From: a virus | Reading direction: 5' to 3' (one strand) | Length of the DNA stretch: 64,000 nucleotides | Virus record (IMG/VR): IMGVR_UViG_3300040801_000524 | Location: 1-64,000 of that record | Shown here: positions 64-20,010 of the stretch, one piece after another | Layout: every line of letters begins with the position of its first letter | Position numbering within the stretch: position 1 is the first letter of the stretch | Program-made: the position numbers and the translations under genes | Notes under the pieces: model-generated | The model's database searches: none | The model's input: only the letters and a program-made list of their open reading frames with translations | What the model was told of the DNA's origin: nothing

Positions 64-204
64 ATGAAGTACGTGAACAAATTTCTGGATTGGTACCTGA
101 TCAACGAAGAAGGTGAAGGGACCATCGGTATGGCCAACGGCTTCCGGCTGTGGCTTTTGGTGATGGTACCGCTTCTGATTGCCGGATACGCAATCTGGGG
201 TTGA
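64..204 (+). CDS. Small single-pass membrane protein, 46 aa
   Basis: ATG at 64 follows the previous stop by two bases, and GGGGAG at 53-58 is a plausible ribosome-binding site. The protein has a polar N-terminal half (about residues 1-27) and a hydrophobic C-terminal half, with LWLLVMVPLLIAGYAIW near residues 29-45, so one membrane segment is likely. The family is not recognised. The stop codon overlaps the -35 element of the promoter for the stable-RNA region. Confidence 0.55.
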   Translation: MKYVNKFLDWYLINEEGEGTIGMANGFRLWLLVMVPLLIAGYAIWG

Positions 205-230
205 CAAACCGATACCAAGGATGGTAGCAT
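201..230 (+). promoter_or_regulatory. Probable sigma70-type promoter for the tmRNA and tRNA region
   Basis: TTGACA at 201-206 is a perfect -35 match. It is followed after 18 bp by TAGCAT at 225-230, a 4 of 6 match to the -10 consensus. It lies directly upstream of the structured RNA that begins before position 300 and just inside the end of the preceding gene. Activity is inferred from sequence only. Confidence 0.55.
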
Positions 231-299
231 ACATACAACGGTGCAGAAATGCCGGTGCCCCACGAAGTGGGTCCCGATGTTGGATCGAATTGCGGTGAG

Positions 300-392
300 A
301 TTCCGTTAGTAGTACCCAACATACCAATTATGGTGGTATGAAGCTGACGATAGCTTTTCTGGACGGGAGTTCGAATCTCCCCGTCTCCACCA
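300..392 (+). ncRNA. ssrA: tmRNA acceptor piece (3' half of a circularly permuted tmRNA)
   Basis: This is the tRNA-like 3' part of tmRNA, lying upstream of the 5' part. GGAC at 361-364 leads into a T-arm with stem GGGAG (365-369), loop TTCGAAT and stem CTCCC (377-381). The acceptor strand CGTCTCC (382-388), A389 and an encoded CCA (390-392) follow. The acceptor strand pairs over all 7 positions, with one G-U, with GGGGACG at 487-493, about 95 bases downstream. TTTTCT (355-360) can pair with AGGGAA (509-514) as the helix next to the acceptor domain, and GTGGT (333-337) with ACCAC (529-533). The 5' boundary is approximate. tmRNA acts with SmpB to rescue stalled ribosomes; no smpB gene was seen here. 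Confidence 0.85.
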
Positions 393-486
393 AGAACGCT
401 TTGAGATGCACCGGACTACTTGGGGGTGTGCATACCCCAAGGACAAAGGCCCTTTAGGTGGGCCGTCCGCTTAGAGTGTTCTTGAT
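393..486 (+). other. Intervening segment of the permuted tmRNA precursor
   Basis: The segment between the CCA end and the 5' acceptor strand folds back on itself. Positions 392-405 pair with 470-483 over 14 consecutive pairs (10 Watson-Crick in type, the rest G-U). Inside are two hairpins: CTTGGGG (419-425) with CCCCAAG (435-441), and GGAC/GGCCC (441-452) with GGGCC/GTCC (460-468). The long stem stacks next to the acceptor stem, as in pre-tmRNAs of permuted genes, where this piece is removed by processing. Removal here is inferred. Confidence 0.8.
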
Positions 487-640
487 GGGGACGACACAGG
501 CATTCGACAGGGAAAGGACAATAGGTTGACCACTCGGTGAAGCAAGAGACCGTAACTCTCACGAACTAAAGTAATCGCAAACGATGACTTTTACGGGGTA
601 GCCTTGGCTGCATAACCCGCATTGAACGTGCCCTTTGGGC
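487..640 (+). ncRNA. ssrA: tmRNA coding piece (5' half with the tag reading frame)
   Basis: GGGGACG (487-493) is the 5' acceptor strand. It is followed by a tmRNA-type D-loop region, including GGCATTCGAC (499-508). The tag frame opens at GCA 577 and ends at TAA 613-615, encoding ANDDFYGVALAA. This has the AND start of bacterial tags and an ALAA end of the kind ClpXP recognises. TAATC precedes the resume codon, close to TAGTC in E. coli. The tag end lies in a helix: GTAGC (598-602) pairs with GCTGC (607-611), and CGGG with CCCG around it. The 3' end of the piece is uncertain; the GCCC TTT GGGC hairpin (630-640) may mark it. Confidence 0.85.
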
Positions 641-642
641 CT

Positions 643-670
643 GTTGGTTCGATTCCAACCACATCCACCA
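643..670 (+). other. Orphan tRNA 3' half (T-arm, acceptor strand, CCA)
   Basis: GTTGG (643-647), loop TTCGATT and CCAAC (655-659) make a perfect T-arm. The acceptor strand CACATCC (660-666), A667 and CCA (668-670) follow. A full tRNA would need a 5' strand like GGATGTG about 75-90 bases upstream, but that region is the tmRNA tag and contains none. No convincing D-arm or anticodon arm was found. It may be a tRNA remnant or a second tRNA-like end linked to tmRNA processing. It does not pair with the tmRNA 5' strand. Confidence 0.5.
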
Positions 671-710: not shown

Positions 711-1058
711 ATGCATCATAGACGTGCCCGACAAGTGGCATTGAAGTTGATGAATTTATATCTTGGTCCGTCATGGAAATTTGAGTTCTTTCAAGAAGAT
801 ACGCACTATGCCGACTGTGATGTCGAGAAGTACGTGATAAGGCTTTCAAAGCCAATGTTGGAAGGCGAAACTGAAGACCACGTGCGTGACACGATCCTAC
901 ATGAGATCGCACACGCATTGGCACCACACGATGACGAAAACGAACATTCGCATCGTTGGAAGCGCATTGCTACAGACATCGGGGCACTCCCAGTGTCGCA
1001 CAAGTACAGTAGCAAGACGCACCCGTTCTCATGGAGACGCAAATCCATGGAAGTTTAA
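711..1058 (+). CDS. SprT-like zinc metalloprotease, 115 aa
   Basis: The protein has a HEIAHAL motif near residues 65-71, the HExxH zinc site of zincin proteases. A further histidine follows in EHSHRWKRIATDIGA, matching the spacing of SprT/SprT-like domains (Spartan family). It is short, essentially a bare catalytic domain with an N-terminal helix and a basic C-terminal tail. Cellular SprT-like proteins cleave DNA-bound proteins; a role on phage or host DNA is inferred. ATG 711 has AAGGA seven bases upstream. The TAA at 1056-1058 directly abuts the tRNA-Asp gene. Confidence 0.8.
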   Translation: MHHRRARQVALKLMNLYLGPSWKFEFFQEDTHYADCDVEKYVIRLSKPMLEGETEDHVRDTILHEIAHALAPHDDENEHSHRWKRIATDIGALPVSHKYSSKTHPFSWRRKSMEV

Positions 1059-1133
1059 GGCTCGGTAGTCTAACGGTAGGACACCACACTGTCGATGTGG
1101 CTGATGAGGGTTCGAATCCCTTCCGGGTCGCCA
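1059..1133 (+). tRNA. tRNA-Asp (GUC)
   Basis: The acceptor GGCTCGG (1059-1065) pairs with CCGGGTC (1123-1129), including G-U pairs. The anticodon arm is CCACA CTGTCGA TGTGG, with GUC in the loop. The T-arm has TTCGAAT, the discriminator is G1130 as usual for Asp, and CCA is encoded. The first base immediately follows the stop codon of the SprT-like gene. Confidence 0.93.
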
Positions 1134-1138
1134 ATTCT

Positions 1139-1214
1139 GTCTCTGTAACATTGTTGGTCAATGTGCCGGGTTGAAATTCCGGAAAAGGTGGTTCGATCCC
1201 ACCCGGGGACACCA
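1139..1214 (+). tRNA. tRNA-Phe (GAA)
   Basis: GTCTCTG (1139-1145) pairs with CGGGGAC (1204-1210). The anticodon stem CCGGG/TCCGG holds loop TTGAAAT, giving GAA. The T-arm is GGTGG TTCGATC CCACC, with discriminator A and encoded CCA. It lies five bases after tRNA-Asp, so both are probably cut from one transcript. Confidence 0.92.
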
Positions 1215-1252
1215 GATTTGAATATTACCTTTCGTTGTGATACCATGGTGAT

Positions 1253-1702
1253 ATGAGAAAACCAAACACCAAATGTGTAACATGTGGAAAGCCACTGTAT
1301 AGAAGACCATCTGACTTGAAAAGGTCGAATAATTCATACTGCCAAGAACATCTTGACGATCATTCTCATGCTCGGGAACGTGGGAAGGAAAGGCATAGAA
1401 AGAAGGTGTACGAAGAATATATTGGTAGATGGAAATTAGGAAAAGAGACTGGAATGAAGGGGAAAACTTCTATATCCAATCACATCCGAAAGTACATGTT
1501 TGAGAAATACGATTCAAAGTGTTGTAAGTGCGGTTGGTCTGAAACAAATCGGGTGACCGGGTTGATACCACTTGAAATCAACCACATTGATGGTATCCAC
1601 ACTCATAACCACGAAGACAATCTTGAATTGTTGTGTCCAAACTGTCACAGTCTGACAAAAAATTTCAGATCGTTGAATAATGGCAACGGTCGCACAAGAT
1701 AA
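1253..1702 (+). CDS. HNH homing endonuclease, 149 aa
   Basis: Two zinc-binding cysteine pairs are visible: CVTCGK near residues 8-13 and CCKCGW near residue 88. They flank an HNH core, LEINHIDGIHTHNHEDNLELLCPNCH written in parts: the EINHIDG segment, an asparagine in EDNLELL, and the CPNCH knuckle. The layout is that of free-standing phage HNH nucleases, which cut a related genome lacking the gene and spread by repair. The sequence is more AT-rich than its neighbours. It sits between tRNA-Phe and tRNA-Ser, and its TAA directly abuts the tRNA. The target is unknown. Confidence 0.85.
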   Translation: MRKPNTKCVTCGKPLYRRPSDLKRSNNSYCQEHLDDHSHARERGKERHRKKVYEEYIGRWKLGKETGMKGKTSISNHIRKYMFEKYDSKCCKCGWSETNRVTGLIPLEINHIDGIHTHNHEDNLELLCPNCHSLTKNFRSLNNGNGRTR

Positions 1703-1802
1703 GGAAGGGTTAGCCGAAAGATTCTGGGTAGCGGCAACTGTCTTGAAAACAGTCGGTCCACGTGAGTGGATGTCGGGGTTCGAATCCACCGTCCTTCCGC
1801 CA
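1703..1802 (+). tRNA. tRNA-Ser (UGA)
   Basis: GGAAGGG pairs with TCCTTCC (1792-1798). The anticodon arm ACTGT CTTGAAA ACAGT gives UGA. A long variable arm, TCCAC GTGA GTGGA, marks a class II tRNA, with discriminator G and encoded CCA. The T-stem needs a one-base bulge: CGGGG pairs with CC-A-CCG. The gene starts immediately after the HNH stop codon. Confidence 0.9.
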
Positions 1803-2004
1803 ATTTAGGGTCGAGGAATTCCGGTAATGGGTTTTGGCATGCTCGCCCACGGGTGGAGTGGATAAAAACAGTAGCCAAATCAAAGAACAGTGTTCGCCAA
1901 CCCGACATGAATCAAACGATTCAATTTCAGAAAAATGTTGCACTTTTCCTGAAAATGTCCGATACTATGGTTGTGGGTTGAGACAACTGAGTGAGGAAAA
2001 AATC

Positions 2005-2325
2005 ATGGGTCTTCGAGTTTCGGTTTATCGCAGTAGCCTTGGGGATTGCACCAACGGTGGTGTGTCTTCCCGAGTCAACAATCTGACCGTGGTCAATGCT
2101 GACGGTCCCTTCGATCCTTCTGAGGATGCACCGGCTGCCAAGCTGGTTGTGGGTCCATACGACACCATTCGCCTTGTGCCGGTCGATCTTCTTGAGACCA
2201 ACGCATGGGTCATGTTCGGTGGAAATCTCGCTGCAACGTCTGACAGCCGCTTTGGTGAGGCCATCGAGAAGTTGGGTGGTGACCGCTTTGCCGCTGCCGT
2301 CAAAATCTTCGACCGGGTGGAGTGA
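2005..2325 (+). CDS. Hypothetical protein, 106 aa
   Basis: I chose the ATG at 2005 because GAGGAAAAAA lies just upstream; an in-frame ATG at 1834 would run through a region with no site. The protein begins MGLRVSVYRSSLGDCTNGG and is rich in short hydrophobic segments typical of a small beta-rich domain (for example KLVVGPYDTIRLVPVDL). The family is not recognised. It is one base from the next gene (TGAGATG), so translation is probably coupled. Confidence 0.65.
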   Translation: MGLRVSVYRSSLGDCTNGGVSSRVNNLTVVNADGPFDPSEDAPAAKLVVGPYDTIRLVPVDLLETNAWVMFGGNLAATSDSRFGEAIEKLGGDRFAAAVKIFDRVE

Positions 2326-2326
2326 G

Positions 2327-2833
2327 ATGAACATCTACACAGAGTGGGATGATGGTGACGATGGTAAAATCTACATCGTTGACAATGAAGCCGGGGAAGT
2401 ATCCATCGAAGTTGAATCAAACTACGTGTGTTTCAACGATGCTGAAGAATTGATGGACTTCTTGGACGACTTTATGGAATACGCTGCCGACCGGTCTCCC
2501 CCGGTTGGTGATGATGAAGACATCGAATCAGAATGTAGTTTCCGTCACAGGATTGGATTTGATTGGTCGAATATGTGGCAGACTGAACAGGGTGACATCT
2601 TCATCGAATTTCAGAAAAGGGGAACGAGTAAAAGTCCATCATTGACCATCTACGAAGGTGGTGACTTTGATGGGTTCACGATCAGTCAAATGAATGGAAC
2701 GTTCACCCTGACCAACGATATTGAAGTATTTCAATTCGCATTGGCTATCAATCGATTCTTCGATTACTATCAACTGAAACTACCCCTGTTACCAACTGGA
2801 CAGGAAGCCGCAACAAGGCCGGACGATGCTTGA
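2327..2833 (+). CDS. Hypothetical acidic protein, 168 aa
   Basis: ATG at 2327 follows the preceding stop by one base. The protein is strongly acidic, with a DDGDDG start, an acidic stretch near residues 38-66 and repeated aromatic-glycine turns (EGGDFDGF). No catalytic motif or membrane segment is seen and the family is not recognised. Its last eight bases overlap the start of the next gene, which fits an operon of small early proteins. Confidence 0.65.
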   Translation: MNIYTEWDDGDDGKIYIVDNEAGEVSIEVESNYVCFNDAEELMDFLDDFMEYAADRSPPVGDDEDIESECSFRHRIGFDWSNMWQTEQGDIFIEFQKRGTSKSPSLTIYEGGDFDGFTISQMNGTFTLTNDIEVFQFALAINRFFDYYQLKLPLLPTGQEAATRPDDA

Positions 2834-3071
2834 ACGTAGACGCAAGCCGGGACTGGGTACCTACAACGGTACCCGGGCCGAATGGAAGGAAGCGTGGAGA
2901 CTCGCACGGGTGCGCAAGGCCCGGGGGGACGGACCAGACGAAACCGGTACCAGCCTCGAATGGAAGGCCGACCTGATCGTGAACTACGAACGACAGGAAC
3001 CCCGGTACCATTCGCCAGCGTGCAACCTTGCTGCCCGGAAGATCATTGAACAGATTCTTGCCGAAACGTAA
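2826..3071 (+). CDS. Hypothetical basic protein, 81 aa
   Basis: It starts at an ATG inside the end of the preceding gene. The N-terminal half is rich in Arg and Lys (MLERRRKPGLG; EAWRLARVRKARGD), suggesting contact with nucleic acid; this is inference only. The C-terminal half is a likely helix (AARKIIEQILAET). The family is not recognised. It is the last gene before an intergenic region containing a hairpin and a strong promoter. Confidence 0.6.
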   Translation: MLERRRKPGLGTYNGTRAEWKEAWRLARVRKARGDGPDETGTSLEWKADLIVNYERQEPRYHSPACNLAARKIIEQILAET

Positions 3072-3101
3072 TGTGACATATATGACGCATTAAGCCGGTT
3101 T

Positions 3102-3124
3102 ATGTGCTATAAAGCGCACATTTT
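3102..3124 (+). terminator. Weak hairpin, possible terminator or operator
   Basis: ATGTGC (3102-3107) and GCACAT (3116-3121) form a 6 bp inverted repeat around an 8-base loop, followed by TTT. It ends at the -35 box of the following promoter. It could end transcription of the upstream operon weakly, or be a protein-binding site next to the promoter. Sequence alone does not decide. Confidence 0.35.
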
Positions 3125-3151
3125 GACGACTTATCCGCAATTGCGTATAAT
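3123..3151 (+). promoter_or_regulatory. Strong sigma70-type promoter
   Basis: TTGACG (3123-3128), a 17 bp spacer and a perfect TATAAT (3146-3151) precede the gene at 3180. This is the best host-type promoter in the window with no competing features, and it implies early transcription by host RNA polymerase. Confidence 0.85.
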
Positions 3152-3179
3152 GACCGTTTATCGGATATAGGAATATATC

Positions 3180-3380
3180 ATGCCACTGCCACTACATGAG
3201 ATCAAGCACAACCACTCGGATGGCCTACGCAAGGCCAGCTACGAACGTGACAAGTACGGTGCCCGGTTGGGTACATGTCGGAACGGGTACCAGTGGTCCA
3301 GCATGGAAGTTGACAGGGAATTCCTGATCGTGCTACAGTCGATCATCGAACAAGCATTACAGGACCCCGGACTTGAGTGA
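3180..3380 (+). CDS. Hypothetical protein, 66 aa
   Basis: This is the first gene after the strong promoter; GATATAGGAATATATC lies before the ATG, with AGGA as a possible ribosome site. The protein is polar with several charged and aromatic residues (HEIKHNHSDGLRKASYERDKYG) and a C-terminal helix (FLIVLQSIIEQALQ). The family is not recognised. As the first host-promoter gene it is a candidate early host-takeover protein, but that is inference from position only. Confidence 0.6.
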   Translation: MPLPLHEIKHNHSDGLRKASYERDKYGARLGTCRNGYQWSSMEVDREFLIVLQSIIEQALQDPGLE

Positions 3381-3924
3381 ACGCTTCCATAAACCATTCG
3401 AAGGTGACATCCATTCGGTAACCGACAAACCCGGACGTGACCTTGTAGCCACGTTCTTGTCGAACCAAGGTGCTGATGTACGTCCGCACCCGGACGACTA
3501 TGACATCGATCTACAGGTGTTCAAACCGGGTACCGACATCCTGATTGCCGAAGCTGAAGTTGAAGTTCGGGTTTCGTGGACTGATCACGAATACATGGAA
3601 GAACGGTGGGGACCATACCTTCACGTTCCCACACGCAAAGAGAAGTTCCTTGACGGGGATGTCCCGTTCATGTTTTTCAGCATCAACCGGAACCTTACCG
3701 GTATGCTATGGTGTTTCGGGAAGACCATCAAGGAATCCCGGATCGGTCGGAACATGAAACAGAAGAAATACTTCAATGAGAAGTTCTTCAAGGTGGAATG
3801 GACCAAGATGAACTGGACAGACCTTCAAGCCGAAGGAATCCAGATTCCGGACTATGAACAGTACCTTCGGGACGTTGACGAACTGGAACGTGCGAAGGGT
3901 TGGGGGAAGTACAAGCATGCGTAA
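3373..3924 (+). CDS. Hypothetical protein, possible restriction-like nuclease fold, 183 aa
   Basis: The frame opens at TTG 3373, overlapping the previous stop; no ATG is near, so TTG is the likely start. Residues near 40-70 carry the series YDIDLQVFKPG then IAEAEVEVRVSW. The D...ExE pattern on adjacent strands resembles the core of PD-(D/E)xK nucleases or related inactive folds, but a clear lysine is missing. The C-terminal third is helical and charged. I would call it unknown, with only weak support for the nuclease fold. Confidence 0.6.
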   Translation: MSERFHKPFEGDIHSVTDKPGRDLVATFLSNQGADVRPHPDDYDIDLQVFKPGTDILIAEAEVEVRVSWTDHEYMEERWGPYLHVPTRKEKFLDGDVPFMFFSINRNLTGMLWCFGKTIKESRIGRNMKQKKYFNEKFFKVEWTKMNWTDLQAEGIQIPDYEQYLRDVDELERAKGWGKYKHA

Positions 3925-4114
3925 AGTCTACCTGAGAGACCTGAAGCCGTTCTTTCAGAAGAATCGGTGGGCACTGAGACCAGTATCCGTCTTGTTGCTT
4001 CTCTTCGTGGCATGGTGGCTTGTACCAGCCGTGGTTTTGTGGGAGAATCGCAGAGAAGTGTTCAATGCAATCGAAGACCTGTGGGCAATGGTCTGGACGA
4101 AACCGATAGAATAG
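3917..4114 (+). CDS. Small membrane protein, 65 aa
   Basis: ATG 3917 overlaps the end of the preceding gene. A basic N-terminus (MRKVYLRDLKPFFQKNRW) precedes a hydrophobic segment, VSVLLLLFVAWWLVPAVVLW, near residues 23-42, followed by a charged tail. One inner-membrane span is expected, with the N-terminus inside by the positive-inside rule. The family is not recognised. The TAG at 4112-4114 directly abuts tRNA-Ser. Confidence 0.65.
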   Translation: MRKVYLRDLKPFFQKNRWALRPVSVLLLLFVAWWLVPAVVLWENRREVFNAIEDLWAMVWTKPIE

Positions 4115-4205
4115 GGTAGGGTGTCTGAGTGGTCTAAGGTGCCCGGTTGCTAACCGGTGTGGACCCTAACCGGTCCCGTGGGTTCGAATCCCACCCCTAC
4201 CGCCA
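4115..4205 (+). tRNA. tRNA-Ser (GCU)
   Basis: GGTAGGG (4115-4121) pairs with CCCTACC (4195-4201). The anticodon loop TTGCTAA gives GCU. A long variable arm, GGACCC TAAC CGGTCC, fits a class II serine tRNA. The T-arm is GTGGG TTCGAAT CCCAC, with discriminator G and encoded CCA. It starts on the base after the upstream stop codon. Confidence 0.93.
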
Positions 4206-4220
4206 ATTATTGAGGTTGAT

Positions 4221-4571
4221 ATGAGTCTGGAAGATTGGTTCGAAGATGTACCACAAGAAGGTCCCGTGGTCGATAAGAATGCCATCAAGGCCCTGATCAA
4301 GCGCAGACGCCTTCAGATGGTGTATCACAGCTACATATACTACAGACTTGACAACAACATCGTTTCAGACGATACTTGGCAGAAATGGGCAGATGAATTG
4401 ACGCATCTGCAACAGGAACACCCTGATTGCTGCAAGATCAACTGCTACGACAAAGAATTTGAAGGTTGGGATGGTGCGACAGGCATGCATCTCCCGGCCA
4501 CGGGGCATGAACGAATGAAGGCCGAGTACCTTGTTGAGATTGCCCAAAAGTACAATGCATCGGTGGTGTAA
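4221..4571 (+). CDS. Hypothetical protein, 116 aa, resembling ligase domain Ia
   Basis: ATG 4221 has TTGAGG before it. The middle contains YYRLDNNIVSDDTWQKW, which resembles the Y-Y-x-x-D-x-x-x-V-S-D pattern of the small N-terminal domain (Ia) of NAD-dependent DNA ligases. The rest of a ligase is absent. The function is therefore unknown; a nucleotide- or DNA-binding role is only a guess. Its last 15 bases, including the TAA at 4569-4571, lie inside the tRNA-Trp gene. Confidence 0.65.
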   Translation: MSLEDWFEDVPQEGPVVDKNAIKALIKRRRLQMVYHSYIYYRLDNNIVSDDTWQKWADELTHLQQEHPDCCKINCYDKEFEGWDGATGMHLPATGHERMKAEYLVEIAQKYNASVV

Positions 4572-4630
4572 AGGCAACACAGCGGTCTCCAAAACCGTTA
4601 ATTGGGGTTCGAGTCCCTACCGGTGTGCCA
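4557..4630 (+). tRNA. tRNA-Trp (CCA)
   Basis: GCATCGG (4557-4563) pairs with CCGGTGT (4620-4626), including G-U pairs. The anticodon arm GCGGT CTCCAAA ACCGT gives CCA. The T-arm has TTCGAGT, with discriminator G as in bacterial tRNA-Trp, and CCA is encoded. The gene overlaps the 3' end of the preceding coding sequence by 15 bases. Confidence 0.92.
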
Positions 4631-4820
4631 AATTGGAACTGACGGATCGTGGTGGATCGTACTCAAAAAGCGCATGGAGTACGCACGTGAAGGTGAATCC
4701 CAATAAAGGTGGACAACATAGTTTTGGGGGGTTTTCTCCACCCTGTTCCGGAACGGCTTATCCAAGGCTGTGAAGAGATCAGCGCAACCCCCACGAATTT
4801 CAACATGACTGGTGAGGATA

Positions 4821-5126
4821 ATGTGTGAAAACGGAAAGTTAGAACCGGTGATCGACCGTGATAGGCTTTTCAAGTTGGTTGATGAAATCAGCAACAAGAA
4901 ACTTGATCTTGAAGTGGGATCATATCGAGATGCCGCAACAATTCAGTCTCAGGCAAACCATATTGCCGCACTGATAAAGAAGGTTGATAGACTCGAATCA
5001 GCGATCAAAGAACATGCCGCAAATTTCCCAGACGAACCCCTTAGTGGTGAAGTGAAACTCTGGAAAACGGTCGGTATCGAGGTATCAACGTTTCACGGAC
5101 GCTTTCAAAATCCAAACCGTCAATAG
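4821..5126 (+). CDS. Hypothetical coiled-coil protein, 101 aa
   Basis: ATG 4821 is preceded by GGTGAGG with only three bases between; an in-frame GTG at 4812 is an alternative but has no ribosome site. The middle of the protein (IQSQANHIAALIKKVDRLESAI in parts) has heptad spacing of hydrophobic residues, suggesting a coiled coil. The family is not recognised. The 190 bases upstream contain no gene that I can support. Confidence 0.6.
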   Translation: MCENGKLEPVIDRDRLFKLVDEISNKKLDLEVGSYRDAATIQSQANHIAALIKKVDRLESAIKEHAANFPDEPLSGEVKLWKTVGIEVSTFHGRFQNPNRQ

Positions 5127-5134
5127 ACAACAAT

Positions 5135-5210
5135 AGCCCTGTGGTGTAAGCTGGCAACACATCTGACTTTGACTCAGACATTTCAGGTTCGAACCCTGAC
5201 GGGGCTGCCA
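5135..5210 (+). tRNA. tRNA-Gln (UUG)
   Basis: AGCCCTG (5135-5141) pairs with CGGGGCT (5200-5206). The anticodon arm TCTGA CTTTGAC TCAGA gives UUG. The T-arm has TTCGAAC, with discriminator G and encoded CCA. The weak A-U first acceptor pair is typical of tRNA-Gln. Confidence 0.92.
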
Positions 5211-5225
5211 TTTTAGGAGTACATT

Positions 5226-5468
5226 ATGATCGGTGACTTCCAACACTTCATCGTGTTCTGGCACGATGGTTCAAATTATCCGGACAGCATCGTTGGTCTG
5301 GATCACATGGCACACGTTGGTGACATCTTCGATGCCCTGACACACTTCACATCGACCGTGGCCCCTTCATTGGGTCTCAAGAACGAAGAATGCCGCATGG
5401 TCCAGATGGATCGTAATACGGTACTCAAAATGTGGTTCGGGGGTGAAGAGAATGTATCTGGAAATTAG
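5226..5468 (+). CDS. Hypothetical protein, 80 aa
   Basis: TAGGAG at 5214-5219 gives a good ribosome site for ATG 5226. The protein is compact, with aromatic and histidine residues at the start (FQHFIVFWHDG) and no recognisable motif. Its end overlaps the start of the P-loop gene that follows, so the two are likely translated together. Function unknown. Confidence 0.65.
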   Translation: MIGDFQHFIVFWHDGSNYPDSIVGLDHMAHVGDIFDALTHFTSTVAPSLGLKNEECRMVQMDRNTVLKMWFGGEENVSGN

Positions 5469-5997
5469 CCCCCGACAATCCGGCAAGACCAAGCGGATGA
5501 TCGATGCCATTCTGGCCCACGTGTCGGCCGGAAATGTGGCATACGTCCAGACTCACAGCGAACACTACTTTCGGGACATGTTGAACTCCCGACTGAAGCC
5601 GAAGTTGCACATGACGGCCAAACACAAGAACATCGTGTTCCTTCGTGATGAAGACCATTTCACTCAACTGAGACGTGGTATGGTTCACTTCGAAGACCGG
5701 CCACGGGTGTTTGCCGATGAAGTTGATTTCGTTGGGGATCGGTTGGTTCTCAACCCACAAGGGTACTACTGTGGTACCCCTAAATATCAGCGAACACAGA
5801 AAGACATCGTTCTCTGGATGATGGGTGAACGGGTTGACAAGTTGCTGGATGCCATCGAAATGAATGGTGGAAAGCACGAATCATATTCTCCGTTCAACAT
5901 GTTCATGAACCGGACTATTGCCGACATCAAGTCGATGCGGATGTGTATGTCCAAAGAACAGTACCAGAACGAAGTCTTCGGATCGATTTACGGGTAG
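5452..5997 (+). CDS. Small P-loop NTPase, 181 aa
   Basis: ATG 5452 follows GGGGGTGAAGAG; an in-frame GTG at 5443 is less likely. The N-terminus carries PRQSGKT near residues 7-13, a P-loop of the terminase/helicase style (compare LPRQMGKT in gp17 of this phage). VFADEVD near residue 86 is a plausible Walker B. It is only about a third the length of a terminase and has no nuclease domain. It may be a stand-alone DNA-dependent ATPase; the substrate is unknown. Its stop codon lies inside the acceptor stem of tRNA-Ser. Confidence 0.7.
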   Translation: MYLEISPRQSGKTKRMIDAILAHVSAGNVAYVQTHSEHYFRDMLNSRLKPKLHMTAKHKNIVFLRDEDHFTQLRRGMVHFEDRPRVFADEVDFVGDRLVLNPQGYYCGTPKYQRTQKDIVLWMMGERVDKLLDAIEMNGGKHESYSPFNMFMNRTIADIKSMRMCMSKEQYQNEVFGSIYG

Positions 5998-6082
5998 GTT
6001 GGCAGAGTGGTCGATTGCGCACGCTTGGAAAGCGTGTGGACCCTAACGGGTTCCGTGAGTTCGAATCTCACACCTACCACCA
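5993..6082 (+). tRNA. tRNA-Ser (GGA)
   Basis: GGTAGGT (5993-5999) pairs perfectly with ACCTACC (6072-6078). The anticodon arm CACGC TTGGAAA GCGTG gives GGA. A long variable arm and a GTGAG TTCGAAT CTCAC T-arm are present, and CCA is encoded. The discriminator is A, unusual for serine, where G is normal. Its first seven bases include the TAG stop of the upstream gene. Confidence 0.9.
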
Positions 6083-6084
6083 AT

Positions 6085-6113
6085 TTGACACACGTATATA
6101 CGTATGTTATACT
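6085..6113 (+). promoter_or_regulatory. Strong sigma70-type promoter with a palindromic spacer
   Basis: TTGACA (6085-6090) is followed after 17 bp by TATACT (6108-6113). The spacer contains the perfect 12 bp palindrome ACGTATATACGT (6092-6103), which would place a dimeric repressor on top of the promoter. It sits just after tRNA-Ser and drives the operon starting at 6142. The operator role is inference. Confidence 0.8.
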
Positions 6114-6141
6114 CTCATTGTGAAGTGATGGGAGTATAACT

Positions 6142-6315
6142 ATGCGTGCAAACGGTACCTTCATTCAGAAGGTTGAAGAGAAGATTGCCAAGATGCGCAA
6201 GGACGATGCCATATCGTATTTGCGTGGAACAGTGAACAAAGGGTTCAACGGCAGTGTGAACAACGCTACCACCATAGCCCTTGAGAAGATTCTTGAACGA
6301 GTGAGGGGTTCATAA
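6142..6315 (+). CDS. Hypothetical protein, 57 aa
   Basis: ATG 6142 has GGGAG seven bases upstream and is the first gene behind the promoter at 6085. The protein (start MRANGTFIQKVEEKIAKMRK) is basic and helical in its first half and ends in another helix (TIALEKILERVRG). It could be a small DNA-binding or antirepressor-type protein, but no family is recognised. Its TAA overlaps the next ATG (TAATG). Confidence 0.6.
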   Translation: MRANGTFIQKVEEKIAKMRKDDAISYLRGTVNKGFNGSVNNATTIALEKILERVRGS

Positions 6316-6629
6316 TGGCAAGGGCAAAGGTAACACACAGTCAAGATGGTGTGACGATCACGTTCCGTGGAGACCCAAAGTCTCCGGAACCGTCAACCGG
6401 GGTGATCCGATTCCCCGGGGGACATGTTGAAGTGACCCGCTGTACCGATGGTACGTACTGGGCACATTTGGAAGTCGATGAACCGGCCAACACGGTTGAC
6501 AGCCGGATCGACCACGATTACGAAGGCTACCGAAAGATGAACGGGCAAATCCCCGATCTTCCGGAAGCCAATCATGTGAAAAAGATCGCTATCCGGGTCG
6601 ATGGACCATTCAGGGAGAACGGTCAATGA
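6315..6629 (+). CDS. Hypothetical protein, 104 aa
   Basis: It is translationally coupled to the preceding gene by TAATG. The sequence alternates polar and hydrophobic residues (VTITFRGD; GVIRFPGGHVEVTRC) and looks like a small beta-sheet domain with a helical tail. No catalytic residues or known family were recognised. It lies in the operon leading to the RNase H-like gene. Confidence 0.65.
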   Translation: MARAKVTHSQDGVTITFRGDPKSPEPSTGVIRFPGGHVEVTRCTDGTYWAHLEVDEPANTVDSRIDHDYEGYRKMNGQIPDLPEANHVKKIAIRVDGPFRENGQ

Positions 6630-6645
6630 AGTAAAGGGGGTTCCT

Positions 6646-7113
6646 GTGTTTACCGAAAAGCAGAAAGAAGAAATCATGGACTACCTGATCGAAACACCGG
6701 GTTCGATCTACCTTGGCTGTGACTCAGTGAAGTACAAAAAAGGTGGACGCTGGTATGCAAGATATGCTACAGTTTTGGTTGTCCACATTGAGGACCGTCA
6801 TGGTTGCAAAGTCTTCGGATACATCGAACATGAACCAGACCATGACGACAAGGAAGACAAGCCCCGTCTTCGTCTGATGAACGAAGTGTACAAGGTTGCT
6901 GAATGCTACCTTGCCTTCGGTGAACTATTCGAAGACCGCAATGTCGAAATTCACCTTGACGTGAACCCGAAGGAAGAACACGCTTCTTCTGCTGTGGTGA
7001 AGCAAGCCGTTGGTTACATCTTGGGTGTGACCGGCATACAACCGCTGATCAAGCCTCAAGCGTTCGCTGCATCCTATGCGGCCGATGCCGGGGCAAGAAA
7101 GGACTTGTACTGA
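6646..7113 (+). CDS. RNase H-like nuclease of the DUF458/YkuK type, 155 aa
   Basis: GTG 6646 is chosen because AAAGGGGG lies five bases before it; an ATG at 6601 in the same frame has no site. The protein shows SIYLGCDSVKYKKGGRWYAR near the start, a conserved acidic residue in the middle and IHLDVNP later. These are the acidic positions of an RNase H fold, in the arrangement of the DUF458 family. Its place upstream of 33-59-32 is where T4 has rnh, so removal of RNA primers is a reasonable inferred role. Confidence 0.7.
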   Translation: MFTEKQKEEIMDYLIETPGSIYLGCDSVKYKKGGRWYARYATVLVVHIEDRHGCKVFGYIEHEPDHDDKEDKPRLRLMNEVYKVAECYLAFGELFEDRNVEIHLDVNPKEEHASSAVVKQAVGYILGVTGIQPLIKPQAFAASYAADAGARKDLY

Positions 7114-7119
7114 TTCTAT

Positions 7120-7198
7120 GGTGTGTGTAGCATAATTGGAGTAATGCCCCTGACTGTGACTCAGGTAGATGCCAGTTCGATTCTGGTCACACACCCCA
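7120..7198 (+). tRNA. tRNA-His (GUG)
   Basis: GTGTGTG (7121-7127) pairs with CACACAC (7188-7194). The extra G at 7120 faces C7195, the G-1:C73 pair that identifies histidine tRNA. The anticodon arm CCTGA CTGTGAC TCAGG gives GUG. The T-arm is GCCAG TTCGATT CTGGT, and CCA is encoded. Confidence 0.93.
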
Positions 7199-18760: not shown

Positions 18761-19117
18761 ATGAACATCAAAGAGTGGAGTATTCAAAAAATGATTACCA
18801 TAGGTGCAACAGTCCTATCGGCTACCATTGCTGCTGGTAGTGCCGGATGGACTCTTCACACCATGTACGAAGATCAACCCCAAATTGATCAGCTACGTAC
18901 CGAGATGGTGGCATTTGGTCAGAAGTCAACCGACACCATTCTGATGCAAATGATGTCAACCGAACAGACCCGCTACGAAGACGAAATCGAGCGTATCAAT
19001 GCCCGTGAGCGTGCCGGTCATGCGTCTGACTACGATCTGAACCGTAGAGACACCATTCAAAACCGAATCAATCAAATCGAACGTGAAAGAAACCTGATGC
19101 TAAAGGACAGACAATAA
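18761..19117 (+). CDS. Small membrane-anchored coiled-coil protein, 118 aa
   Basis: A hydrophobic segment at about residues 11-33 (MITIGATVLSATIAAGSAGW) is followed by a charged region with coiled-coil character (EQTRYEDEIERINARERAG; NRINQIERERNLMLK). The shape resembles Rz-type spanins or tail accessory proteins, but no partner is seen. AGGAAG gives a ribosome site. CATAAATAAC lies 13-20 bases before the start. Function unknown. Confidence 0.65.
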   Translation: MNIKEWSIQKMITIGATVLSATIAAGSAGWTLHTMYEDQPQIDQLRTEMVAFGQKSTDTILMQMMSTEQTRYEDEIERINARERAGHASDYDLNRRDTIQNRINQIERERNLMLKDRQ

Positions 19118-20010
19118 TGAAATCCCTATCCGAATTTTCCAAAGATATGTGCGTACTCTCCGAGGAAGCCCGAGAGTACCTTGAAGAAAGACTTCTTCAA
19201 ATCGGTGGTGGCCAGAAGTATGGTCAGATCGTATTCTTGGCCGGTGGTGGTGGTTCCGGAAAGGGGTTTGCCGCTTCCAACTTCATGGAATCCGACAAGT
19301 TCAAGGTCCGTGACGTGGACGAATGGAAGCGTCTGTTCCTGAAGGCCGAACAAGAAGCCGGGAAGCATCCAGAACTGAAGGACCTGAACCTTCGCAACCC
19401 GAAGGATGTGTTCAAGCTACACAAGTTCGTTGACGATCTGGACATCAAAAACAAAACCCTGACGAACCTTCTTCGTGACACCAAACCGGATCGGCTGCCG
19501 AACATCATGTTCGACATCACTGCCAAAAACGTCAAGTCAATCGAGAAGGTCATTCCCCTTCTTCTGGCTGTCGGTTACAACGTCCGTGACATCAACCTTG
19601 TATGGGTTCTGACCAACTATCGTGTTGCTGTTGAACGCAACGCTGGCCGTTCCCGTGTGGTTCCTGAAGACATCCTGTTGCAGACTCATGAGGGTGCGGC
19701 CCGCACCGTGTACGACATCGTGACCAAGGGAACCCTTGGCCGCAATCTGTTGGACGGTGGCATCTACGTGATCCTGAACAACAAGGAGAACACCGTCTTC
19801 TGGACCGATTCAGAAGGCAAGGCAATCAAGAACACCAAAGGCAACCCGGTGATCAAGGACTTCACGTACCTGACCCTGAAACGTCCCGGTGGTTCTATCG
19901 TCAAGGAAGGCGAAGTGAAGAAGCAACTTCTTCAGTGGATTCTGGACAACGTGCCGAAGACCAAGCTGACTGCCGACATTTTCGGTGAAAACCCTGACAA
20001 CGTGAAGTAA
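19117..20010 (+). CDS. P-loop kinase-like protein with capsid-targeting-like N-terminus, 297 aa
   Basis: VFLAGGGGSGKGFAASNFM near residues 39-57 contains a Walker A motif of the kinase/zeta-toxin type. VRDVDEWKRLFLKAEQ follows, and later VVPEDILLQTHEGAARTVYD suggests a lid region. The first residues, MKSLSEFSKDMCVLSEE, resemble T4 capsid-targeting sequences (compare MKTYQEFIAE of T4 internal protein III) and contain L-S-E, a possible prohead-protease site. It lies between hub genes, unusual for an enzyme. Substrate unknown. Confidence 0.7.
   Translation: MKSLSEFSKDMCVLSEEAREYLEERLLQIGGGQKYGQIVFLAGGGGSGKGFAASNFMESDKFKVRDVDEWKRLFLKAEQEAGKHPELKDLNLRNPKDVFKLHKFVDDLDIKNKTLTNLLRDTKPDRLPNIMFDITAKNVKSIEKVIPLLLAVGYNVRDINLVWVLTNYRVAVERNAGRSRVVPEDILLQTHEGAARTVYDIVTKGTLGRNLLDGGIYVILNNKENTVFWTDSEGKAIKNTKGNPVIKDFTYLTLKRPGGSIVKEGEVKKQLLQWILDNVPKTKLTADIFGENPDNVK

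What the first reader, a model, noticed from the sequence alone, without database searches (positions are those of the whole stretch)
201..640. Phage-encoded circularly permuted (two-piece) tmRNA
The tRNA-like 3' end (T-arm, CGTCTCC, A, CCA; 361-392) lies upstream of the 5' acceptor strand GGGGACG (487-493) and the tag frame (577-615). The two acceptor strands pair over all 7 positions, and TTTTCT (355-360) with AGGGAA (509-514) forms the adjoining helix. Permuted ssrA genes are known from alpha-proteobacteria, some beta-proteobacteria and some cyanobacteria; a phage T4-type genome carrying one would let the phage bring its own ribosome-rescue RNA.
Basis: partly seen in the sequence, partly recalled or inferred. 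Interest (0 to 1): 0.92.

Follow-up and report, generated by a model that had tools for sequence, protein, structure and literature searches.

The report
Phage two-piece tmRNA, tRNA-Tyr-tailed
A T4-like phage carries its own gene for a two-piece ribosome-rescue RNA, which is a known kind of phage gene; the one unusual feature is that the back half of a tyrosine tRNA sits where related phage copies have a pseudoknot.

Summary
Window 327-615 is a circularly permuted ssrA (tmRNA) gene. Rfam tmRNA_permuted scores 100.6 bits (cut-off 47), ARAGORN calls it permuted, the acceptor stem pairs 7/7 across the permutation with a G3-U70 pair, and the tag is ANDDFYGVALAA-stop. The reading is not new. Two-piece tmRNAs in phages are published, relatives are annotated in Stenotrophomonas Menderavirus phages, and 70 to 80 more turned up in one capped scan of IMG/VR. 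The genome is T4-like (gp17-type terminase, gp59 loader, baseplate wedge gp6). The standard-order alternative fails: the second CCA end at 668-670 pairs only 4/7 with the 5' strand. That second end is the 3' half of a tRNA-Tyr (about 622-670), lying directly behind the tag where several relatives have a terminal pseudoknot. No 5' half was found in the record, and no other viral permuted locus examined shows this. The likeliest cause is a deletion that fused tmRNA to a neighbouring tRNA-Tyr. Whether the tRNA half now sets the 3' end of the coding piece, or is inert or an assembly error near the contig end, is open.

The parts
201..230 (+). promoter-like site TTGACA-18-TAGCAT with TG before the -10
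   Evidence: 3 promoter-like sites found in 1-1400 against 1.5 expected, so consensus match only
237..326 (+). leader of the presumed precursor, folded, no known family
   Evidence: fold z -1.5; no Rfam match; no phage match of note
327..392 (+). acceptor piece: 5' strands of the helices (332-337, 355-361), T-arm 365-381, acceptor 3' strand 382-388, A389, CCA 390-392; the 5' end is approximate
   Evidence: 77% identical to Menderavirus over 323-405
393..486 (+). intervening segment, strong branched hairpin, presumed removed; ends TTGAT before G487
   Evidence: fold -43.7 kcal/mol, z -4.2; GAT precedes the mature 5' end in 54 of 76 viral loci
487..615 (+). coding piece: acceptor 5' strand 487-493, TTCGAC of the D-loop 503-508, helix strands 508-514 and 529-534, PK1 (535-538/549-552 and 545-548/556-559), tag and stop; its 3' end is not known
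   Evidence: the second PK1 stem is read by eye
577..615 (+). tag reading frame ANDDFYGVALAA-stop
622..670 (+). 3' half of a tRNA-Tyr: variable arm 630-640, T-arm 643-659, acceptor 3' strand 660-666, A667, CCA 668-670; no 5' half
   Evidence: blastn to phage tRNA-Tyr genes; no ARAGORN call, no tRNA listed for 560-720, no 5' half found

Best explanation
This is a phage-encoded permuted ssrA gene. It is probably transcribed from its own early-type promoter at 201-230 as one precursor. The acceptor stem and the 94-nt hairpin loop hold the precursor together. Host RNase P would cut before G487 and host 3' processing would end the acceptor piece at CCA 392, leaving two RNAs joined by the acceptor stem and the two helices below it. 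Charged with alanine (G3-U70, A73) and bound by host SmpB, it would rescue stalled ribosomes and add ANDDFYGVALAA for proteolysis, helping translation in infected cells. At the outer 3' end, a deletion has probably joined the region behind the tag to the 3' half of a neighbouring tRNA-Tyr, replacing the terminal pseudoknot; its T-arm and CCA may now help define the end of the coding piece. Shown: gene structure, pairing, tag, phage context, tRNA-Tyr homology, no 5' half found in this record. Inferred: transcription, processing, charging, rescue, and the deletion history.
For: RF04321 100.6 bits over the whole model; ARAGORN permuted call with tag; relatives in Menderavirus, in X1, DLP_6 and Axy11 and in IMG/VR; acceptor pairs 4-69, 5-68 and 6-67 change type while staying paired in 79 of 80 viral loci; T4-type proteins; tRNA-Tyr match behind the tag; pseudoknot at that place in several relatives but not evident in the window.
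Against: No RNA data. beta_tmRNA, the best full-length older model, stays under its cut-off (62.2 against 84). The usual terminal pseudoknot of the coding piece is not evident, so the gene could be impaired. No SmpB in this incomplete record. The pairing set is selected by ARAGORN and by a pattern that fixes positions 70-73 and CCA.
Confidence: 0.85

Rival explanations
1. A permuted tmRNA gene that is damaged: the fusion with a tRNA-Tyr fragment has cost it the terminal pseudoknot, and it no longer makes a working tmRNA.
For: Pseudoknot missing where several relatives have one; only half a tRNA left.
Against: Acceptor stem, G3-U70, T-arm, resume site, tag with ALAA and stop are intact; T-stem and acceptor strand of the tRNA half are unmutated against VCPH and 4_4572 at the CCA end, so the fusion is not old decay.
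Confidence: 0.1
2. Standard-order tmRNA running from G487 to the CCA at 668-670.
For: A T-arm and CCA do follow the tag.
Against: GGGGACG pairs only 4/7 with CACATCC, with three mismatches in a row, against 7/7 with CGTCTCC upstream; no GGAC before that T-arm; no standard tmRNA match listed.
Confidence: 0.01
3. The tmRNA gene was inserted into the anticodon loop of a tRNA, whose 5' half lies upstream at about 275-310 and 3' half at 622-670.
For: GATGT 276-280 can pair with ACATC 661-665; joined halves were called tRNA by ARAGORN in pseudogene mode for a few join points.
Against: With random window segments as 5' half, 20 of 60 gave calls and 9 of 60 gave at least as many as the real one; the upstream region does not align to the 5' half of tRNA-Tyr.
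Confidence: 0.03
4. The tRNA-Tyr join is an assembly chimera; the true gene has an ordinary 3' end.
For: The locus lies within 700 bases of the contig end; a single contig shows the join.
Against: The open stretch continues without a break into SprT-like, tRNA-Asp and tRNA-Phe genes; no long repeat at the join is known.
Confidence: 0.15

Closest known systems
Permuted tmRNA of Menderavirus (Stenotrophomonas phages Yut2, Marzo, Bhz51, Moby, Mendera)
   Same: Permuted order, linker motif, acceptor piece 77-78% identical, T4-like phage, tRNA neighbours
   Different: Tag VAANDDSYTVRIAA; terminal pseudoknot kept; complete tRNA-Leu before and tRNA-Thr behind; intervening segment 56-57 nt, 94 here
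Two-piece tmRNA of methylophage Melnitz and pelagiphages (PMC9004378)
   Same: Phage-encoded two-piece tmRNA in a T4-like myophage
   Different: Reported as alphaproteobacterial in ancestry and linked to a glutamine riboswitch; not compared by sequence here
Rfam RF04321 tmRNA_permuted; RF01850 beta_tmRNA; RF01849 alpha_tmRNA
   Same: tRNA-like domain and order; passes RF04321 and alpha cut-offs
   Different: Below the beta cut-off; no terminal pseudoknot evident
tRNA-Tyr genes of Vibrio phage VCPH and Aeromonas phages 4_4572 and AhP_Mru1
   Same: 3' half matches 82-94%, including the acceptor strand ACATCC in VCPH and 4_4572
   Different: Only the 3' half is present here, behind the tmRNA tag

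Membership tests
permuted (two-piece) tmRNA, RF04321 | Covariance model match over the cut-off | tested here: met
   100.6 bits, cut-off 47, model 1-213/213
permuted (two-piece) tmRNA, RF04321 | T-arm and CCA strand encoded upstream of the 5' acceptor strand, pairing across the permutation | tested here: met
   7/7 pairs, ARAGORN
permuted (two-piece) tmRNA, RF04321 | Alanine identity: G3-U70, A73 | tested here: met
   sequence
permuted (two-piece) tmRNA, RF04321 | Tag frame with stop, ending ALAA | tested here: met
   ANDDFYGVALAA-stop
permuted (two-piece) tmRNA, RF04321 | Terminal pseudoknot of the coding piece, as in several close phage relatives | tested here: not met
   a simple scan, and the feature is not part of the RF04321 model, so it marks a difference rather than excluding membership
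permuted (two-piece) tmRNA, RF04321 | Two mature RNA pieces, alanine charging, SmpB binding | not testable with these tools
   needs RNA from infected cells
beta_tmRNA, RF01850 | Score over the cut-off | tested here: not met
   62.2 against 84; Menderavirus 92-95 passes
alpha_tmRNA, RF01849 | Score over the cut-off | tested here: met
   55.5 against 50, model 40-281/355
tRNA-Tyr gene | Complete cloverleaf including 5' half | tested here: not met

The most novel reading that the evidence does not exclude
The tRNA-Tyr 3' half is a working part of the coding RNA: a captured T-arm and CCA that has replaced the terminal pseudoknot and defines or protects the coding piece's 3' end, giving a two-piece tmRNA in which both RNAs end in a tRNA-like CCA.
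Probability: 0.15. Interest if true: 0.5.

Novelty: new member of a known kind. Interest (0 to 1): 0.3.

Why it matters
It adds a T4-like phage to those that bring their own two-piece ribosome-rescue RNA. The family looks common in viral contigs (most tmRNA-like loci in one capped scan), although several annotated phage records leave it out. A linker motif shared with Menderavirus was found in five viral contigs and in none of 84,980 bacterial and archaeal species genomes, which suggests, for this motif, a lineage kept within phages. The tRNA-Tyr fusion is a possible natural experiment on what the coding piece needs at its 3' end.

Tried and rejected
Standard-order tmRNA to the second CCA: only 4/7 acceptor pairs. 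tRNA split by the tmRNA: joined halves recognised by ARAGORN no more often than with random segments. Complete but divergent tRNA at 580-670: none called. tRNA-Tyr 5' half elsewhere in the 73.7-kb record: GGATGT-type sites inspected, no Tyr anticodon arm. Same T-arm-behind-tag arrangement in IMG/VR: five pattern hits, one a complete tRNA-Leu in a tRNA cluster and four copies of one protein-coding gene. Close relatives through the neighbouring SprT-like protein: none. An exact 20-base piece of the acceptor segment: no hit. Bacterial source of the linker motif: two genome scans empty; the first pattern did not itself fit the window, the second did. Leader 237-326 as known RNA: nothing. Variovorax V45v66, Acidovorax ACP17 and Synechococcus S-H38 phages, similar in terminase: no permuted tmRNA.

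Full report
WHAT IS THERE. The stated elements are all present at the stated positions. The acceptor strands 382-388 (CGTCTCC) and 487-493 (GGGGACG) pair at all seven positions, including the G3-U70 pair used by alanyl-tRNA synthetase (established knowledge). The helix 355-361/508-514 has seven pairs and a further helix 332-337/529-534 has six. ARAGORN calls a permuted tmRNA at 300-706 with tag ANDDFYGVALAA-stop. Rfam tmRNA_permuted (RF04321) matches 332-615 over its whole length at 100.6 bits against a cut-off of 47. alpha_tmRNA passes its cut-off over part of its model (55.5 against 50); beta_tmRNA covers the whole gene but stays below its cut-off (62.2 against 84). No match to the standard tmRNA model was listed.

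CONTEXT. A TTGACA-18-TAGCAT promoter-like site with TG before the -10 lies at 201-230. A SprT-like protein (711-1058), tRNA-Asp and tRNA-Phe follow. The contig is a 73.7-kb virus record with T4-type proteins: gp17-like terminase, gp59 helicase loader, gp6 baseplate wedge (the gene numbers are my reading of the family names). Its terminase is about 50% identical to those of Menderavirus, Variovorax phage V45v66, Acidovorax phage ACP17 and cyanomyoviruses. No SmpB is encoded in this record, which is probably incomplete.

RELATIVES. The nearest isolates are Menderavirus phages of Stenotrophomonas, 77-78% identical over the acceptor piece and themselves RF04321 members at 118-119 bits. One capped scan of IMG/VR for the tmRNA T-arm gave 119 loci, of which roughly 75 to 80 are called permuted by ARAGORN; a few of those calls, such as L017 and L062, look spurious. 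Across 80 permuted viral loci 79 keep 7/7 acceptor pairs while pairs 4-69, 5-68 and 6-67 change type. ARAGORN requires pairing, and the search pattern fixed positions 70-73 and CCA, so this supports but does not prove the pairing. A linker motif shared with Menderavirus occurs in five viral contigs and the window, and in no bacterial or archaeal species genome. A tree of the core puts the window with Menderavirus, DLP_6, Axy11 and several IMG/VR contigs (local support 0.96). Three phage records, Xanthomonas phage X1, Stenotrophomonas phage DLP_6 and Achromobacter phage Axy11, carry permuted tmRNAs over the cut-off with no tmRNA in the annotation shown.

THE ODD PART. Behind the tag, 622-670 carries a variable arm, a T-arm with consensus loop, a seven-base acceptor strand, A and CCA. 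Its best phage matches are tRNA-Tyr genes: 94% over 627-659 (Aeromonas phage AhP_Mru1), 85% over 631-670 (Vibrio phage VCPH), 82% over 627-670 (Aeromonas phage 4_4572). No 5' half was found upstream, in the intervening segment or elsewhere in the record. In relatives this place holds a pseudoknot (clear in L002, L137, L138, L139, L147; weaker or not found by this simple scan in others), and none stands out in the window. Apart from the complete tRNA-Thr found 70 bases behind the tag in Menderavirus, no other permuted locus examined has a T-arm of that kind there; L028 has a complete tRNA-Gly further down. In Yut2 a complete tRNA-Leu ends only six bases before the first tmRNA helix; tRNAs abutting tmRNA ends are therefore part of this gene neighbourhood, and a deletion fusing tmRNA to a neighbouring tRNA-Tyr is plausible (inference). 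An assembly chimera cannot be excluded, because the locus lies within 700 bases of the contig end.

HOW IT PROBABLY WORKS. One precursor, held by the acceptor stem and the strong intervening hairpin (fold z -4.2), is cut by RNase P before G487 (GAT precedes the mature end in 54 of 76 viral loci) and trimmed to CCA 392. The two pieces stay paired, are charged with alanine and rescue stalled ribosomes with host SmpB. All of this is inference from the family; only the anatomy is shown.

NOVELTY. Phage two-piece tmRNAs are published: 53 unique two-piece structures by ARAGORN among phage genomes, Melnitz included in that study (PMC9004378), and RF04321 with a database holding 79 phage tmRNAs of all forms (PMC11915505). 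This is a new member of a known kind, with an unusual 3' end seen in a single contig.

Noticed in passing
L054, L089 and L061 (IMG/VR contigs): Permuted tmRNA genes whose intervening segment is only 4 nt (CTGC, CTAT), next to a near-identical gene (L061) with a 76-nt hairpin there: the intervening segment can apparently be gained or lost whole.
   Followed up: partly
OQ427096 121009-121337, KU682439 102838-103059, MK962630 15628-15917: Permuted tmRNAs without a tmRNA annotation in Xanthomonas phage X1, Stenotrophomonas phage DLP_6 and Achromobacter phage Axy11.
   Followed up: yes
L002 2922-3010: In Menderavirus phage Yut2 a complete tRNA-Leu ends six bases before the first helix of the tmRNA acceptor piece, so its 3' processing could set the 5' end of that piece; in Bhz51 an insert separates them.
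   Followed up: partly
window 1059-7198: Seven tRNAs (Asp, Phe, Ser-gct, Trp, Gln, Ser-gga, His) scattered singly between small genes behind the tmRNA.
   Followed up: no
window 711-1058: SprT-like metallopeptidase gene between the tmRNA and tRNA-Asp (Pfam PF10263, 45 bits).
   Followed up: no
window 19117-20010: Protein with a Zeta-toxin-type kinase domain (Pfam PF06414, 25.8 bits) among tail and structural genes.
   Followed up: no
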